This document shows positions 5,391-16,601 of a stretch of DNA of 55,982 nucleotides, piece after piece. Source of the stretch: Candidatus Saccharimonadota bacterium (GTDB taxonomy: Bacteria; Patescibacteriota; Saccharimonadia; Saccharimonadales; Saccharimonadaceae); the NCBI GenBank assembly GCA_017510985.1, contig JAFWLR010000010.1:1-55982 (forward strand). The letters are read 5' to 3'. The notes under the pieces were generated by a model, which saw only the letters and a list, made by a program, of their open reading frames with translations, did not search any database and was not told the origin of the DNA. Each line of letters begins with the position of its first letter. Position 1 is the stretch's first letter. The position numbers and the translations under genes were made by a program.

Positions 5391-5999
5391 TTACTGTTCA
5401 TTATTCTGTATATACACATATTTATAATCGTCCAAATCATACCCTTTTTCAGCTAACTTATCTCGCACCGCCATCAGCACCTCGTCCGTCAATTCTGCTC
5501 TGCGCCCACTAATTATCAAACACTCTCCACCACACTCTACGTTACGCTCATAATCCACAGCCACCGCATCACAATTCGTCCGCTTCGCCGGCGCCCCACA
5601 AATAGACAACCTTAAAGGCATCACCTCACCAATTGCATTTTTATGTTCCAATTCTTCTACCGTATAATATTGCCACCCTCCACTCTTGGTCCAATTCATA
5701 TATAGCCCCGTGGTCTCATTCTGCACCAAATTAAATTCCACCACCTCCGGCTCTACCCCATCTAATCGTACTGTGGCCGTATACGTCCCAGGTTCCATTT
5801 CATACACTGCATTCCGATATTCTTTACCTCCAATTTCTACCGTAGCCTCCACTGGCGTCACTAACACATCCAAATACGCCGGTTTACCCAAATATTCCCC
5901 CAGTGGTATCAATACCCAAAAAATCAACGCCGCAAGCAGCAACATTGTTCCAAATACAATTCCTCCTCCCAAATAAATTTTTTTCAAATCTTTATCCAT
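5391..5999 (-). CDS. Unknown single-pass membrane protein with PEGA-like segment
   Basis: 202 residues. One membrane segment (about 8-33) is followed by an outward region. Residues about 42-100 (LDVLVTPVEATVEIGGKEY, YEMEPGTYTATVRLDG) resemble a PEGA-type beta-sandwich, which is common in surface proteins. The rest has four cysteines (ICGAPAKRTNC, VECGGEC) that could form disulfides. The start overlaps the stop of the upstream gene by one base, so it is translated with that gene and the multidomain hydrolase. Function is unknown; support for cell-wall binding is an inference from context. Confidence 0.8.
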   Translation of the reverse strand: MDKDLKKIYLGGGIVFGTMLLLAALIFWVLIPLGEYLGKPAYLDVLVTPVEATVEIGGKEYRNAVYEMEPGTYTATVRLDGVEPEVVEFNLVQNETTGLYMNWTKSGGWQYYTVEELEHKNAIGEVMPLRLSICGAPAKRTNCDAVAVDYERNVECGGECLIISGRRAELTDEVLMAVRDKLAEKGYDLDDYKYVYIQNNEQ

Positions 6000-6697
6000 T
6001 ATATCCCTCCATCACAAAAATCCGGCACTTCCACCGTATAATTAATTACCTTATAACCTAATGCATCAATCCATTTTTCCACCGCCGTTTTTGCATTTAC
6101 TTTTACTTCCTCATCCCCGCAACTGCTTACTCTTACATTTAAATATTCCGCCCCTACTTCATTTGTTTTTCGCGTCACCGTCACGATTTCACCACTATCC
6201 AAGCTAAACGTATATGGCAAATACCGTCCCACCGTCACGCTCATCGCTGAGGTTTTATCACTTTTGCAATCAGTTCCAGCGTATTTCATTTGTTCCGGCA
6301 AAGGACAATCCAGCACCGGCGATTCATAAAACCCTTCACTACCCATCAGTGCAAACGACACCCGATATGTCGCCTGATACTTATCCACGTCTACCAAAAA
6401 ACTATAATTCCGTACCCCATCTTTATCCGTCACCACGAACGAACTTGGTCGCACCAAAGCCACCACCCCACCAACATCCTCACTCGCCCCTTGCGTTCTC
6501 TGCAAACTTTCCCAAATAAACTTTTCCAAATCCCGCACTTCACTACTAGTTAACCCACTATTCACCTGATCTATATTATATAAGTCCAACTTTTTACTCG
6601 CCGTCAACACACTCACTACCGCCACTACTATAATCAATCCAAACGCCAAAAGTGCCGCTATGATACCAATTTTAATTTTTTTATTCGTCTCTTTCAT
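5999..6697 (-). CDS. Unknown membrane-anchored extracytoplasmic protein
   Basis: 232 residues with one N-terminal membrane helix (about 8-32, IGIIAALLAFGLIIVVAVV) and an outward soluble part. The soluble part contains a cysteine pair (LDCPLPEQMKYAGTDC) and another pair near the C-terminus. I do not recognise a family. It starts 16 nt after the large peptidoglycan hydrolase and overlaps the next gene by one base, so the three are probably co-transcribed and may act together at the cell wall. Confidence 0.8.
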   Translation of the reverse strand: MKETNKKIKIGIIAALLAFGLIIVVAVVSVLTASKKLDLYNIDQVNSGLTSSEVRDLEKFIWESLQRTQGASEDVGGVVALVRPSSFVVTDKDGVRNYSFLVDVDKYQATYRVSFALMGSEGFYESPVLDCPLPEQMKYAGTDCKSDKTSAMSVTVGRYLPYTFSLDSGEIVTVTRKTNEVGAEYLNVRVSSCGDEEVKVNAKTAVEKWIDALGYKVINYTVEVPDFCDGGI

Positions 6698-6713: not shown

Positions 6714-9185
6714 CTATTTTTTAAATCTAAACACCCTAAAGTCATTATCATAATAATTACCAATATCCCCACTTCGCTCACAGTGTGAAGCCGCCGCAAT
6801 ATGCGGCTCACCATCAATCTCTACATATAATTCAATATGGTTTGGACCAATCCGAATATCTCCTGGCTGTAAATTACCTAATCCACCAGACACTTCCTGA
6901 TATTTACCAGATGACAAAATGTAATTCAGCGTCGCTCCACCCGTAATCCCACAGCAATAGAAATCCGGATCCACTCCCGAATATCGCATTACCGTCGTCA
7001 CAAACGCATCACAACTCCCACCCGCCATCGAACAAGCATCCCCCAAGTGATTCACGCCTGTGTCCACCAACGCCTGCGCGTAAACCGGATTTGGGTCATC
7101 CCAACCATGCTGTCCATATTCATTTGCTGGCCACGCTAACTCAATTGCTGTCGCATTAATATCACCATTGCCGCCAGTAGAACAAGCCGCATTATATCCC
7201 CCACTTCTATCAAGCGCCGCCTCAATATACTGCCAAATATCCCCCGGATCTTTGTGGTCATTGCCCGGCGCGTGCATATGTCCTAGCACCCCCTCGTATT
7301 CAGTAAATTCATTCGCACTCATCCTTGCCGTATGTGGCCCCCACAACACACTAGAAGTTAGCGGTATCCCTGTTTGCTCTGAAATCGCCCGTAGCAGCTT
7401 CACCAAATAATCCCAATCTTCATCCGCAAAGTTCCCCACGTCATAATTCGCATCATATCCCGCACTCGAAGAATCACTAAAGCCCACAATCTCAATTTGC
7501 ACCGGCCCTGCCAAGTCATAATCTTTAATCGCCAACGCCGGCTGGTCAATGGCAAAATTTTGATACCCTGCCTTTTTCTTCAAATCTACAATAAAATGCG
7601 CTGGATATTTATTGCTAGCCGGGTACGCCTCATAGCCATTAGTTGTCCCCTCCGTCGTATGTAGCAAAATCTTATTCGGCTTACCATTTTCTGTCGTATA
7701 ACTCCCCTTAGCATTCGCTGGCTCTTTCAAATCCGTTGCTGTATTTACATCCTGCCGCTTAATCCCTGCAATTGAATCATCCACTAGCCATCCATCCTCC
7801 CATTTACCACCCGATTTTTCTACACTTCCACAATCACATAAAGCATTTAATTTCCCTCGATAATTGCCAAATTTGCTTACAATCTCTTGTCCTTCAGCCG
7901 ATTCCACAAAAGCTGTCAAAGCATCCACCGAAGCCTTCATTGCTTCAATCGAACCATATCCTGCTCCGTTCGGGTCACCCTGCACCCACGTCGGGCCAAT
8001 CGCCATTAAATACTCCTTTGCATCAGCAATCCCTAACGCCTGATCGTGAAAACCATTTGTCAAAGTTTCTGCATACATAACAAACCCTTCGCCCAAATTA
8101 TTTCCTTGCTTTGATGCCCCTCCTACACCTGTTCCCGCCGGGCAGCCATTTCCCCAAAAATTATTCCGCCCACATACCGAATCCGGATCTTCATACCGCA
8201 TTTGCACTAGTATTGCAATCCAAGGCGCTCCCACCGCGTCGCCCAATTGATATGCCAAATCCCCATAAGTTTCTAGTAGTTGCTTCATCGACTCCGTATC
8301 ACCATCCGACCATCTCGCGCTCGGCACATCACCTGACCCATTAAAGAAACTTTTATCCGCATTTTTTGCTGATAAAACTTTGGCAAAATTCCCCGTCCCC
8401 GCCAAGCTCCCACTCGTACTCGTAGTTTTGGGCATCGCCTCATAAATCACATCCACCCATTTCTCATAACCTCCATTTGCATCTGGATGAGTACTATTAT
8501 TCACAAAATACGCATCGTCATAAGCCACCGCCCAATCTGCCAAATAATAATTATCGTTACTATTCACCAGCGCCCTCAAACGTTCATTAGTGCCATTATC
8601 ATCCGACATCAAATGAGCTTTCGCTTTAGCAGTCACAAATACTACTTTGGTGTCTGGATTAGCCGCCAAAATATTTTCAAATTCGCTCACTTCATCATCC
8701 GTCCAGCCCGCATTGGTCCCCACCGCCATCACAAGATAAGGTTTCAGCTCGCCAGCCTCTACAATACGCTTTAGTATCGTTAAAGCTGGCGGATTCGCGT
8801 CACCACCTCCATATCTATCACTCACTCCCTTGTTAGACTGAATATAGGAGTTAGCATTCTCCACACCACTCCCAAACGAAATTCCCTCAAACTTTTCCTC
8901 AATAATCGCTTTTGCAGCTACCGAATACGAATCCCCAATCCAAGTAATATTATCCCCTGTCGGCGCAGCATAAGATATACCATTCACCGAACATTCCGTT
9001 GGATCATAATACAAAATATTATTTTGCGAAAATTGTCGCATTTGCCCAGCAGTCAGCCCACTAGTCGTCAAATTTTTCTTCGCTGCCATTACGCTGGGCA
9101 TCATTATTACCGAAACTAGACCCGTCAACATTAAAGCCACCCCGCCCACTAGCCAAATTTTTCTCTTTAAGCTAGTTCTTTTCAT
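6714..9185 (-). CDS. Four-domain secreted peptidoglycan-acting enzyme (SGNH, glucosaminidase-like, amidase, CHAP/NlpC-like)
   Basis: 823 residues with an N-terminal signal or anchor (about 10-35). Residues about 78-250 look like an SGNH/GDSL domain: GDS at 84-86, GTN at 156-158, and THPD with His233. The Asp usually three residues before that His appears as Asn230. Residues about 300-445 resemble a lysozyme-like glucosaminidase (APWIAILVQMRYEDP, NFWG). Residues about 495-660 match Amidase_2/AmpD-type: LLHTTEG (His509), His636 and DPG (Asp646), a plausible zinc site. Residues about 700-823 look like a cysteine peptidase of CHAP/NlpC type (SCDAF, Cys725; GPNHIELYV, His783). The protein should cleave or modify cell wall, its own or a host's. 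It is first gene of a three-gene operon and appears leaderless. Confidence 0.85.
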   Translation of the reverse strand: MKRTSLKRKIWLVGGVALMLTGLVSVIMMPSVMAAKKNLTTSGLTAGQMRQFSQNNILYYDPTECSVNGISYAAPTGDNITWIGDSYSVAAKAIIEEKFEGISFGSGVENANSYIQSNKGVSDRYGGGDANPPALTILKRIVEAGELKPYLVMAVGTNAGWTDDEVSEFENILAANPDTKVVFVTAKAKAHLMSDDNGTNERLRALVNSNDNYYLADWAVAYDDAYFVNNSTHPDANGGYEKWVDVIYEAMPKTTSTSGSLAGTGNFAKVLSAKNADKSFFNGSGDVPSARWSDGDTESMKQLLETYGDLAYQLGDAVGAPWIAILVQMRYEDPDSVCGRNNFWGNGCPAGTGVGGASKQGNNLGEGFVMYAETLTNGFHDQALGIADAKEYLMAIGPTWVQGDPNGAGYGSIEAMKASVDALTAFVESAEGQEIVSKFGNYRGKLNALCDCGSVEKSGGKWEDGWLVDDSIAGIKRQDVNTATDLKEPANAKGSYTTENGKPNKILLHTTEGTTNGYEAYPASNKYPAHFIVDLKKKAGYQNFAIDQPALAIKDYDLAGPVQIEIVGFSDSSSAGYDANYDVGNFADEDWDYLVKLLRAISEQTGIPLTSSVLWGPHTARMSANEFTEYEGVLGHMHAPGNDHKDPGDIWQYIEAALDRSGGYNAACSTGGNGDINATAIELAWPANEYGQHGWDDPNPVYAQALVDTGVNHLGDACSMAGGSCDAFVTTVMRYSGVDPDFYCCGITGGATLNYILSSGKYQEVSGGLGNLQPGDIRIGPNHIELYVEIDGEPHIAAASHCERSGDIGNYYDNDFRVFRFKK

Positions 9186-13732: not shown

Positions 13733-14164
13733 TTAATTGTTCGGTATTTGGTCCACCCCATTTACCGGTTCCTGTAGTCCCAGATCTTTCTTAATTTTTG
13801 TCGTAGATATTCCTTCAGTTCTCGGTAGATACACTACCTCACAAATATCCCTCAAACACTCAAAATTTTTATCGCCCTCCCAATCGGATCCCATCACCAC
13901 AGTATCTATTTTATACTCTAAAACATCATTCCGTTTCTGCTCCCAAGTATTTTCTGGTATAACCAAGTCAACATATCTTACCGCTTCCAACATTTTCTTT
14001 CTAGTTTCATAATTGTGATAGGCCTTTTTATTTTTTATGGCATTAAATTCGTCAGACGATACCGCCACCACCAAATAATCGCCCAACGCTTTCGCTCTTC
14101 TCAAAATTTCAATATGTCCATGGTGCAATAAATCAAACGTACCATAAGTTAATATTCTTTTCAT
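13733..14164 (-). CDS. tagD: TagD-like glycerol-3-phosphate cytidylyltransferase
   Basis: 143 residues, normal for TagD. It has the nucleotidyltransferase motif GTFDLLHHGHIEIL (HxGH) and RTEGISTTKI near the C-terminus, both typical of glycerol-phosphate cytidylyltransferases. It should make CDP-glycerol from CTP and glycerol 3-phosphate. No TagB/TagF-type transferase is nearby, but a LicD-family transferase is two genes upstream and could use the CDP-activated group. Another CDP-alcohol or sugar is possible. Confidence 0.88.
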   Translation of the reverse strand: MKRILTYGTFDLLHHGHIEILRRAKALGDYLVVAVSSDEFNAIKNKKAYHNYETRKKMLEAVRYVDLVIPENTWEQKRNDVLEYKIDTVVMGSDWEGDKNFECLRDICEVVYLPRTEGISTTKIKKDLGLQEPVNGVDQIPNN

Positions 14165-14241: not shown

Positions 14242-15741
14242 TTATTTCCTCTTCAGATATTTCTTAAAAAACTTTAATTCATCGCGGAAAAACACCAAAC
14301 TTACCCCTACTAACAATATTCCAATTATCACAGAATACAATATTGCATGCCAAATCCAACTTATAATCGTATTATCCGAATATGGAATCAATAAACACAA
14401 AGCGATGCCAACCATAGTAGCGAACAAAAATATCAACAATTTACGGTAGAAAAACCACTGTCGCCATCGTGGCACGATCCTAGATGTATAGTAAACGTGA
14501 AACACCATTCTATACAACATCGCCACAATCGTGCCAATCGCCACACCGACAATCCCTAAAAACGGCACCAATACCACGGAAATCACAATATTGAGCCCCG
14601 CCTCCACAAACGCCGGTTTCGAAATTTCCTTAAATTTATCCGCCGAATATGCCAGATTAAGGTGCGGGAACTTCAACAAATATAGCGCTTCCGCAATTAT
14701 TATCAACACACCAAATAACGGCTGATAATAATCCGCATCCGTCAACCCCTCAGTATAAAACATCACAAACGGCGTGATTAATAGTATCGCCACGCCAAAA
14801 ATAAAAAATACCAACATAAATATAATATATTCGTACATATCAAGCTTATGTTTCAAATCCTTAAAATCATTCCTCGCATAAGCATGACCTAGTGTCGGGT
14901 TCAAACTGGAAGTCAATGCATTTATCACATTTTTTATCCCCATCGTAATCAACGAATACACACTATAAACCGATACTGTTGCCAAGTTAGTAAAAATAGT
15001 CAGTACTGCTATGTCAGTACTATTATGTATAAAAGCTGCAGTATTAATCGCAAACCCATCCCATCGCCCTTTTATCAGGGCGTTGTCAGCCTTGACATTT
15101 CGATCAATTTTATAGTGTTTTTTCACATACCATACATACACAATCGGTTGCAATACGAACACTACCCCGGTCAAAAATTTCAAAAAATGTATATCAGGAT
15201 AAACTTTTATTGCTAGCACCGCCAATGCAATTTCCGCAATTCGAATAAACGCTTGGGTAAACGACACCACATATATTTTCTTATCAGCATTTAGCAGAGT
15301 CCGATATGTTATTGAAAACATATATTGGATAATATTCACAATCGACAAAATCAAAGTCAGCGATAAAATATAAACAAAATCAAATCCCGTGTTAAATATG
15401 ATCGGATAAACTACGCCCAATATAATCGCATAAACAATAAATATGTAACTAATTCTTCTATAAAATCTCTTCGCCGAGGCTAAAATGGCACTCACTTTCT
15501 CATCATCATGATCCGTCAATGGCTTATAAAGTTTCGCCATTATCACACCCGTAATACCACCCTCTACCAATGCAATGTAACCCAAAAACTGCGTGAGCGA
15601 CGACACCAACCCATTCACATCCGACCCAAACGCATCTAAAATTAACTTCGGGATAATAAACCCATTCAAAACTAAAACTATCTGCAAAAACAAAGTCGAA
15701 ATAGTATTCAGAAGCGTAACTCTGTTTTTTAGTTTATTCAT
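14242..15741 (-). CDS. Wzx-like polysaccharide flippase
   Basis: About 499 residues with 12 or more hydrophobic helices and few charged loops, in the MVF/MATE-like polysaccharide transporter family. Such proteins flip lipid-linked repeat units across the membrane for a Wzy polymerase. The ATG at 15741 overlaps the LicD stop (TGATG); a GTG one codon earlier is an alternative. Flanking LicD, glycosyltransferases and a Wzy-like protein support the Wzx assignment. Codon use is AT-richer than in the outer genes of the locus. Confidence 0.88.
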   Translation of the reverse strand: MNKLKNRVTLLNTISTLFLQIVLVLNGFIIPKLILDAFGSDVNGLVSSLTQFLGYIALVEGGITGVIMAKLYKPLTDHDDEKVSAILASAKRFYRRISYIFIVYAIILGVVYPIIFNTGFDFVYILSLTLILSIVNIIQYMFSITYRTLLNADKKIYVVSFTQAFIRIAEIALAVLAIKVYPDIHFLKFLTGVVFVLQPIVYVWYVKKHYKIDRNVKADNALIKGRWDGFAINTAAFIHNSTDIAVLTIFTNLATVSVYSVYSLITMGIKNVINALTSSLNPTLGHAYARNDFKDLKHKLDMYEYIIFMLVFFIFGVAILLITPFVMFYTEGLTDADYYQPLFGVLIIIAEALYLLKFPHLNLAYSADKFKEISKPAFVEAGLNIVISVVLVPFLGIVGVAIGTIVAMLYRMVFHVYYTSRIVPRWRQWFFYRKLLIFLFATMVGIALCLLIPYSDNTIISWIWHAILYSVIIGILLVGVSLVFFRDELKFFKKYLKRK

Positions 15742-16601
15742 CACTCAACTTTCTCTTTACTATCATTCTTACGTTCCAATTTCTCCGCCTCTCCTTCATA
15801 TCCTTCTTTCCACCAAGCTTTCGTATTATGTTTAGGCACTCTATCCTCTTCCGGCGGCAATTTCATATAATCCCCAAAAATAGTCCTGAGAATCTCGTCG
15901 TAATTCTTAAATATCATCACATCCAAACCCTCAAATTTTACATCAATATACTCTTCAGTATTCTTTTTCAACTGAATCTCGTGTTCAAAACCATATGCTG
16001 GCCAATTCAACATAACAAAATCAGTAGAGACTTTACTATCACAAGACCTCATATAAATACGTTTTAAACAATAGGGAGTAATCAAATTTGCAAAAGGATA
16101 TAGCAATATTTTACCGATATTTTTCGCACTCTTTAATCCTGTTTTATCAAGCATACTTAACCCAAACATTTTCTTTATCATATTCACATATAAATAATGT
16201 ATATATCGTTTCATTCTGTTATTTGGCACAAAGTGATATTTAAAAATATCGACATAAACTCCGTAATTTTCAATTTCTTTGGTATGATTCTCAACCAACA
16301 CCGTACGCACGTCAACCAACTTTGCACAAGGATAAGGATATTTACCATTACTCTTTGGGTTAAGCAACAAATAACGATCATTATCTTCCGACAAAGCCAT
16401 CATCAACTTTTTATAATCCTCCGGCACCAAAGCAATATCAATATCATCATCCCACGGTATAATACCACCATGTCTAATTGCGCCAATCAGAGATCCACCG
16501 ATTAAAGAATATTTAATATCGTGTTCTCTGCAGGTCTTATCTATATACCTCAACAATTCTACTAAAATTTTTTTATGAACCTCTAAATCTATTTTCTTCA
16601 T
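15741..16601 (-). CDS. LicD-family phosphotransferase
   Basis: 286 residues with the LicD core: YSLIGGSLIGAIRHGG followed by IIPWDDDIDIAL, the metal- and nucleotide-binding Asp cluster. LicD enzymes transfer a phospho-alcohol from a CDP donor onto sugars (phosphocholine in pneumococcus; related fukutin-family enzymes use CDP-ribitol or CDP-glycerol). With tagD nearby and no choline genes seen, transfer of glycerol phosphate to the surface polysaccharide is a reasonable inference. It overlaps the flippase start by one base and is one base from the GT2 gene. Confidence 0.87.
   Translation of the reverse strand: MKKIDLEVHKKILVELLRYIDKTCREHDIKYSLIGGSLIGAIRHGGIIPWDDDIDIALVPEDYKKLMMALSEDNDRYLLLNPKSNGKYPYPCAKLVDVRTVLVENHTKEIENYGVYVDIFKYHFVPNNRMKRYIHYLYVNMIKKMFGLSMLDKTGLKSAKNIGKILLYPFANLITPYCLKRIYMRSCDSKVSTDFVMLNWPAYGFEHEIQLKKNTEEYIDVKFEGLDVMIFKNYDEILRTIFGDYMKLPPEEDRVPKHNTKAWWKEGYEGEAEKLERKNDSKEKVE

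What the first reader, a model, noticed from the sequence alone, without database searches (positions are those of the whole stretch)
6714..9185. Four catalytic-type wall domains in one exported protein
SGNH-like, glucosaminidase-like, AmpD-like amidase and CHAP/NlpC-like modules are in one 823-residue chain. Together they could deacetylate, cut glycan, strip the peptide stem and cut peptides. In an epibiont this could serve attachment to or feeding on a host wall. The SGNH part has Asn230 where the catalytic Asp is expected.
Basis: partly seen in the sequence, partly recalled or inferred. Interest (0 to 1): 0.68.

Follow-up and report, generated by a model that had tools for sequence, protein, structure and literature searches.

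The report
Four-module exported wall-cutting enzyme, T4SS-derived
A tiny Saccharibacterium (these cells live attached to other bacteria) exports one protein carrying four cell-wall enzyme modules; it belongs to the enzyme family that normally sits in this group's type IV secretion gene cluster, and one module is of the kind that phages use to burst actinobacteria, which points to opening the wall where two cells touch.

Summary
In detail: the 823-aa ORF (minus strand) is an exported chain of four folded wall-enzyme modules: SGNH, glucosaminidase-like, AmpD-type amidase and NlpC/P60-type (C40) peptidase. Zinc-site and Cys-His motif residues are conserved. Asn230 does replace the catalytic Asp. 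Corrections: the SGNH module is of the OatA (peptidoglycan O-acetyltransferase) C-terminal type; Asp-to-Asn in OatA abolishes transfer and leaves 13% hydrolysis, and a close relative has lost the module outright, so it is probably decaying. The enzyme is followed by two membrane-anchored proteins, one of a PEGA family. That family lies directly downstream of a C40 enzyme in 20/20 distant loci, beside recF at the end of the type IV secretion (T4SS) cluster, where the enzyme is a glycan-cutter plus C40 (VirB1/CwlT-like). Six genomes carrying the four- or three-module cassette have an empty slot after virB4. Among phages the amidase module matches essentially only actinophage endolysins. Best reading: a relocated, enlarged T4SS-type wall-opening enzyme acting at the epibiont-host contact. 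The family link is strong; T4SS service and host-wall target are inferred. New variant of a known kind.

The parts
6714..9185 (-). 823-aa exported four-module wall enzyme (whole ORF, stop included)
9084..9185 (-). signal-peptide-like N-terminus (residues 1-34)
   Evidence: hydrophobicity
8424..8960 (-). SGNH module, OatA-C type (residues 76-254)
   Evidence: profile vs OatA-C E 5e-18; fold Z 19.4
8496..8498 (-). Asn230 codon, in place of the catalytic Asp
7845..8396 (-). glucosaminidase-like (GH73/FlgJ-like) module, Glu332 (residues 264-447)
7191..7799 (-). AmpD-type zinc amidase module of the actinophage-endolysin subfamily (residues 463-665)
6717..7166 (-). C40 (NlpC/P60-CHAP superfamily) peptidase module, Cys725-His783 (residues 674-823)
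5999..6697 (-). P1: 232-aa single-pass membrane protein, partner gene of all full-length homologues
5391..5999 (-). P2: 202-aa single-pass membrane protein of a PEGA family; partner of T4SS-linked C40 enzymes across the class

Best explanation
The protein is an enlarged and relocated member of the wall-opening enzyme family that belongs to the Saccharibacterial type IV secretion (T4SS) cluster. The family core is an exported glycan-cutter plus C40 peptidase, encoded with a membrane-anchored PEGA-family protein, as in VirB1/CwlT/PrgK hydrolases of monoderm conjugation systems. Here an AmpD-type amidase lies between the two core modules, an OatA-type SGNH module lies in front, and a second membrane partner (P1) has joined. 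Most likely the enzyme is exported by Sec and held near the membrane by P1/P2 (inferred, compare PrgK-PrgL). At the contact site it cuts the glycan backbone, removes stem peptides and cuts stem peptides, opening a local hole for the T4SS or attachment apparatus. The amidase points to the actinobacterial host's wall as a target. The SGNH module is probably a decaying or regulatory remnant with little or no catalysis. Shown: modules, conserved residues, cassette, family link to the T4SS locus, empty T4SS slot in six relatives. Inferred: activity, tethering, T4SS service, host-wall target.
For: Modules and folds. Conserved residues: 19-22, 119. Three-gene cassette beside every full-length homologue while other flanking genes differ: 40, 45. 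P2 directly downstream of a C40 gene in 20/20 distant loci chosen from the P2 search alone: 52, 55, 57. All 20 lie beside recF, 19 show dnaN; VirB4 was found in 4 of 5 extended loci (the fifth is masked): 111, 112, 118. PrgI and VirB4 confirmed by Pfam: 113. The T4SS-linked enzymes are glycan-cutter plus C40 (PF18013, PF01832, SLT): 108. The slot after virB4 holds the C40+P2 pair in G233 and G394 but lacks it in G100, G239, G319, G221, G431, G435, which carry the four- or three-module cassette elsewhere: 58, 61, 112, 117. The T4SS is essential in S. epibionticum (PMC10633639) and peptidase/lysozyme genes downstream of virB4 are reported essential (PMC12102498): 105, 123. Amidase module hits in phages: 99 of 100 are Streptomyces/Brevibacterium phages (one unlabelled), while an AmpD control finds other hosts: 80, 90; profile 58-112 bits for actinophage lysins versus 16 or less for others: 102. 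Accessory, not housekeeping: two separate CHAP proteins of 365-406 aa in each of six near-complete genomes, one in the incomplete own genome: 67.
Against: The window gene is not in the T4SS cluster; the own genome's contig ends just after virB4, so its slot cannot be seen. Three genus genomes with virB4 (G134, G161, G127) have no C40 enzyme of this family, and 22 of 94 good genus genomes lack one, so an empty slot does not prove replacement. Most empty slots go with the same VirB4 lineage, so the loss may be inherited rather than compensated. G394 has both a three-module enzyme and a filled slot. Kinship to actinophage lysins does not prove substrate. In PrgK only one of three predicted hydrolase domains is active (PMC11323569), so conserved residues do not guarantee activity. 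The glucosaminidase fold match is weak (Z 9.9, rmsd 5.5).
Confidence: 0.55

Rival explanations
1. Secreted host-wall degrading exoenzyme independent of the T4SS: the epibiont lyses or grazes the host wall for nutrients or a foothold, and P1/P2 protect or tether it.
For: Sporadic, module-shuffled family; actinophage-type amidase; not encoded at the T4SS; separate CHAP housekeeping enzymes exist.
Against: The P2 partner and C40 core are those of the T4SS-linked enzyme; nothing links it to nutrient uptake.
Confidence: 0.25
2. Own-wall remodelling enzyme (division, growth, passage of the cell's own T4SS or pilus) with no host target.
For: The family core is T4SS-linked, and VirB1-type enzymes open the producer's own wall; EPS genes and a LytR-CpsA-Psr gene lie nearby.
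Against: Other CHAP hydrolases in every genome tested; patchy occurrence; amidase of actinophage lysin type.
Confidence: 0.15
3. Contact-dependent antibacterial enzyme against rival bacteria, with P1/P2 as immunity proteins.
For: Enzyme plus adjacent membrane proteins of variable sequence; module shuffling as in polymorphic toxins; the C40 module resembles Tae1 among fold matches.
Against: P2 accompanies even the conserved T4SS-linked enzyme class-wide, which fits a tether or assembly partner better than immunity.
Confidence: 0.05

Closest known systems
VirB1/CwlT/TraG/PrgK-type hydrolases of monoderm T4SS
   Same: Exported glycan-cutter plus C-terminal C40/CHAP module; family members encoded beside PrgI/VirB4; PrgK has three hydrolase domains, one degenerate, and a membrane partner (PMC11323569, PMC12102498).
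   Different: Four modules including Amidase_2 and an OatA-type SGNH; gene relocated away from the T4SS; PEGA-family and P1 partners.
OatA C-terminal SGNH domain
   Same: Sequence profile (E 5e-18) and fold (Z 19.4); Ser and His kept.
   Different: No acyltransferase-3 membrane domain, Asp replaced by Asn, the Val460 equivalent is Ser117.
Actinophage endolysin amidases (Brevibacterium AGM phages, Streptomyces phages)
   Same: 36% identity over 86% of the module; shared GHxHxPxNxHxDP motif.
   Different: The two lysins read here have no C40 module; their C-terminal parts differ from this protein.
AmpD / Amidase_2
   Same: Fold Z 14.7, zinc ligand pattern.
   Different: Below the Pfam gathering score; exported, multi-module.
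FlgJ/GH73 glucosaminidases
   Same: Q-x-x-x-E motif with invariant Glu; weak fold match.
   Different: Pfam PF01832 found in only 1 of 22 relatives of this module.

Membership tests
Saccharibacterial T4SS-linked glycan-cutter+C40 / PEGA-partner family | C40 module of the family profile | tested here: met
Saccharibacterial T4SS-linked glycan-cutter+C40 / PEGA-partner family | P2 membrane partner encoded just downstream | tested here: met
   P2 is the second gene downstream, after P1
VirB1/CwlT-type T4SS hydrolase | glycan-cutting module plus C40/CHAP module in one exported chain | tested here: met
   the glycan-cutter assignment of the window module is by motif and a weak fold match
VirB1/CwlT-type T4SS hydrolase | encoded within or next to the T4SS cluster | tested here: not met
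   window gene lies by ribosomal and EPS genes; own VirB4 is on another contig
VirB1/CwlT-type T4SS hydrolase | needed for T4SS function | not testable with these tools
   needs genetics
OatA | SGNH domain of OatA-C type | tested here: met
OatA | Ser-His-Asp triad | tested here: not met
   Asn230
OatA | N-terminal acyltransferase-3 membrane domain | tested here: not met
   no multi-span region in the chain; also no AT3 gene found in G319 and G221 and no MBOAT in seven genomes
Amidase_2 / AmpD fold | fold and zinc ligands His-His-Asp | tested here: met
   His509, His636, Asp646 plus Glu565; Z 14.7
Amidase_2 / AmpD fold | Pfam PF01510 gathering score | tested here: not met
   21.6 bits against 26
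GH73 glucosaminidase (PF01832) | profile match and fold | tested here: inconclusive
   1 of 22 relatives at E 4e-4; FlgJ Z 9.9, rmsd 5.5
NlpC/P60 (C40) superfamily | Cys-His pair in a papain-like fold | tested here: met
   Cys725 invariant, His783 in at least 90%; NLPC_P60 in 14 of 37 relatives; Tae1 Z 9.8
PcsB-like CHAP housekeeping hydrolase | strong CHAP PF05257 match in a 365-406 aa protein | tested here: not met
   the window C40 does not match CHAP; separate CHAP proteins exist, one in the own genome

The most novel reading that the evidence does not exclude
Saccharibacteria have turned the wall-opening enzyme of their T4SS into a freely shuffled, relocatable family of multi-module enzymes, and armed it with an amidase shared with actinophage endolysins, so that the epibiont drills the host's wall from outside while the PEGA-family and P1 partners hold the enzyme at the contact site.
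Probability: 0.35. Interest if true: 0.8.

Novelty: new variant of a known kind. Interest (0 to 1): 0.62.

Why it matters
How Saccharibacteria breach their actinobacterial hosts is an open question; their T4SS is essential for epibiotic growth in one species, but its wall-opening step is barely described. This work names a concrete enzyme plus membrane-partner pair at that T4SS, shows that a subgroup carries an enlarged relocated version, and links one module to enzymes selected to cut actinobacterial walls, so host-wall drilling becomes directly testable. The natural Asp-to-Asn change followed by loss of the SGNH module looks like a catalytic module being retired.

Tried and rejected
Whole-protein NCBIfam, PHROGs and PDB sequence searches: no hits. 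SGNH, glucosaminidase and C40 modules against phages: nothing (82-84); glucosaminidase profile against viral contigs: nothing. First full-length alignment A5 misaligned the SGNH pieces and was dropped. Partial glucosaminidase-profile hits in ~420-aa proteins first looked like helix noise; sequence and Pfam showed that two hold real GH73 domains, so the 'C40only' label in the tree means 'without the window's SGNH, glucosaminidase or amidase module at full length'. The idea that the four-module enzyme replaces the housekeeping hydrolases was rejected because separate CHAP proteins exist. A 5946-aa 'giant' ORF in L155 is an artefact of masked N. Literature searches in the held library found no description of this protein or of PEGA proteins in Saccharibacteria; absence there is weak evidence.

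Full report
OBSERVATION. The ORF at 6714-9185 is on the minus strand and codes for 823 aa. It starts with a signal-peptide-like stretch and has no other membrane span. The window protein alone gives one sub-threshold Pfam hit, Amidase_2 (E 2.9e-4), and nothing in NCBIfam, PHROGs or PDB sequences. Relatives were collected from genomes of the same class and the modules were profiled separately. SGNH: GDSL_2 in 18 of 29 relatives, and the profile's best PDB matches are the C-terminal domains of OatA (E 5e-18 to 2e-17). Glucosaminidase-like: PF01832 in 1 of 22. Amidase: XlyA, PlyG and AmpDh2. C40: NLPC_P60 in 14 of 37. AlphaFold2 gives four folded domains and a very confident SGNH domain. Fold matches: OatA-C Z 19.4 with the next family at 14.5; AmpD Z 14.7, FlgJ Z 9.9, Tae1 Z 9.8. 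The three hydrolase modules keep their expected residues.

THE SGNH MODULE. Asn230 is real. In the alignment of 29 modules most have Asp there; L002, a close homologue, shares the Asn, while L003 has Asp. In OatA from S. pneumoniae D568N leaves 13% hydrolysis and no transfer (PMC5697884), and the Val that promotes transfer is Ser117 here by the profile alignment. On the C40 tree L004, which lacks the SGNH module exactly (its chain jumps from about residue 71 to 245), is sister to L002 inside the window's clade. So Asp-to-Asn and then loss is the simplest order. The SGNH module is also the least conserved: window versus L003 57%, against 77-91% in the other modules. Other members have lost the His or Ser as well. 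'Deacetylates' is therefore unlikely for this copy.

MODULE SHUFFLING. The same modules recur in many orders: S-G-A-C, G-A-C, S-A-C, G-S-C, A-G-C, S-C, C-S-A and others. On the C40 tree the presence of extra modules changes at least five times by well-supported branches. L049 and L038 have closely similar C40 modules but only one carries an SGNH module.

THE CASSETTE. Two genes follow the enzyme on the same strand: P1 (232 aa, start about 16 bases after the enzyme's stop) and P2 (202 aa, start overlapping P1's stop). Each has one N-terminal membrane span. Both are present beside every full-length homologue, including those where other flanking genes differ. P2 belongs to a PEGA family (20 of 30 members match PF08308) found in 239 of 392 class genomes. 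I took 20 distant P2 hits chosen from that search only: all 20 lie directly downstream of a gene ending in a C40 module, on the same strand.

LINK TO THE T4SS. These 20 loci all lie beside recF, 19 with dnaN in view and most with dnaA. In longer pieces the genes upstream include PrgI (VirB3) and VirB4, confirmed by Pfam. The partner enzymes there are a glycan-cutter (phage tail lysozyme, SLT or GH73) plus C40, the plan of VirB1/CwlT/PrgK hydrolases. In S. epibionticum the T4SS is essential for epibiotic growth (PMC10633639), and peptidase and lysozyme genes just downstream of virB4 are reported essential (PMC12102498). In the window's genus, G233 and G394 have VirB4-C40 enzyme-P2-DnaJ, while G100, G239, G319, G221, G431 and G435, which carry the four- or three-module cassette elsewhere, have no C40 enzyme or P2 between VirB4 and DnaJ. 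In G100 and G239 the four-module protein is the only enzyme of this C40 family. By coordinates, eight further genus genomes have a C40 gene within about 6 kb of virB4 (G234, G296, G255, G215, G073, G137, G110, G123), while five with multi-module enzymes elsewhere do not (G099, G301, G068, G189, G136). The caution: G134, G161 and G127 have virB4 but no C40 enzyme of this family, so an empty slot is not proof of replacement.

TARGET. The amidase module matches 100 phage records at E 1e-3 or better: 67 Streptomyces, 32 Brevibacterium, 1 unlabelled, nearly all listed ones annotated endolysin; the only plasmid hit is from Streptomyces. A divergent Saccharibacterial amidase module gives only Brevibacterium phages. 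As a control, E. coli AmpD finds 54 phage records with Rhizobium, Agrobacterium, Salmonella, Paenibacillus and other hosts, and no actinophage among those listed. The module profile scores actinophage lysins at 58-112 bits and four other phage amidases and AmpD at 16 or less; a GHxHxPxNxHxDP motif is shared. Four related viral contigs are 62-66% G+C against 42% for the window. Known Saccharibacterial hosts are Actinobacteria (PMC10633639), so the match is suggestive, not proof.

HOUSEKEEPING. Two CHAP proteins of 365-406 aa occur in each of six near-complete genomes and one in the incomplete own genome. The four-module enzyme is thus an addition, not the only wall hydrolase.

MECHANISM. Most likely the enzyme is exported, kept near the membrane by P1/P2, and opens the wall locally at the contact site, as PrgK does with its membrane partner PrgL (PMC11323569). 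That paper also warns: of PrgK's three predicted hydrolase domains only one is active and the others regulate it, so a silent SGNH module could be regulatory. Whether the enzyme acts on the epibiont's wall, the host's, or both is open.

VERDICT. Observation confirmed; interpretation partly supported; new variant of a known kind. The scores reflect strong comparative evidence for the family link and only inference for function.

Noticed in passing
L156, L157 (G121, G123): Next to the C40+P2 pair lies a 674-697 aa protein; in G123 it has phage tail lysozyme and M23 domains, a second wall enzyme in the same cluster.
   Followed up: partly
window 13733-14164 and 15741-16601, minus strand: Genes that look like glycerol-3-phosphate cytidylyltransferase (TagD) and LicD sit in the EPS cluster near the enzyme, hinting at teichoic-acid-like or phosphocholine decoration (by eye from the translation, not tested).
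   Followed up: no
L065, L015, L048, L010 SGNH modules: Several SGNH modules have lost the catalytic His (and L065 the Ser), so SGNH pseudo-enzymes seem to have arisen more than once.
   Followed up: partly
window 5391-6697: P1 and P2 families resemble each other in their C-terminal ~80 residues; P1 has no significant Pfam match in 26 members.
   Followed up: partly
L018: A contig labelled Coriobacteriia carries a Saccharibacterial-type glucosaminidase-like module (62% identity) with a P1-like gene upstream: mis-binning or transfer into an actinobacterium.
   Followed up: no
L155: Apparent 5946-aa ORF ending in C40 is caused by masked bases, not a giant protein.
   Followed up: yes
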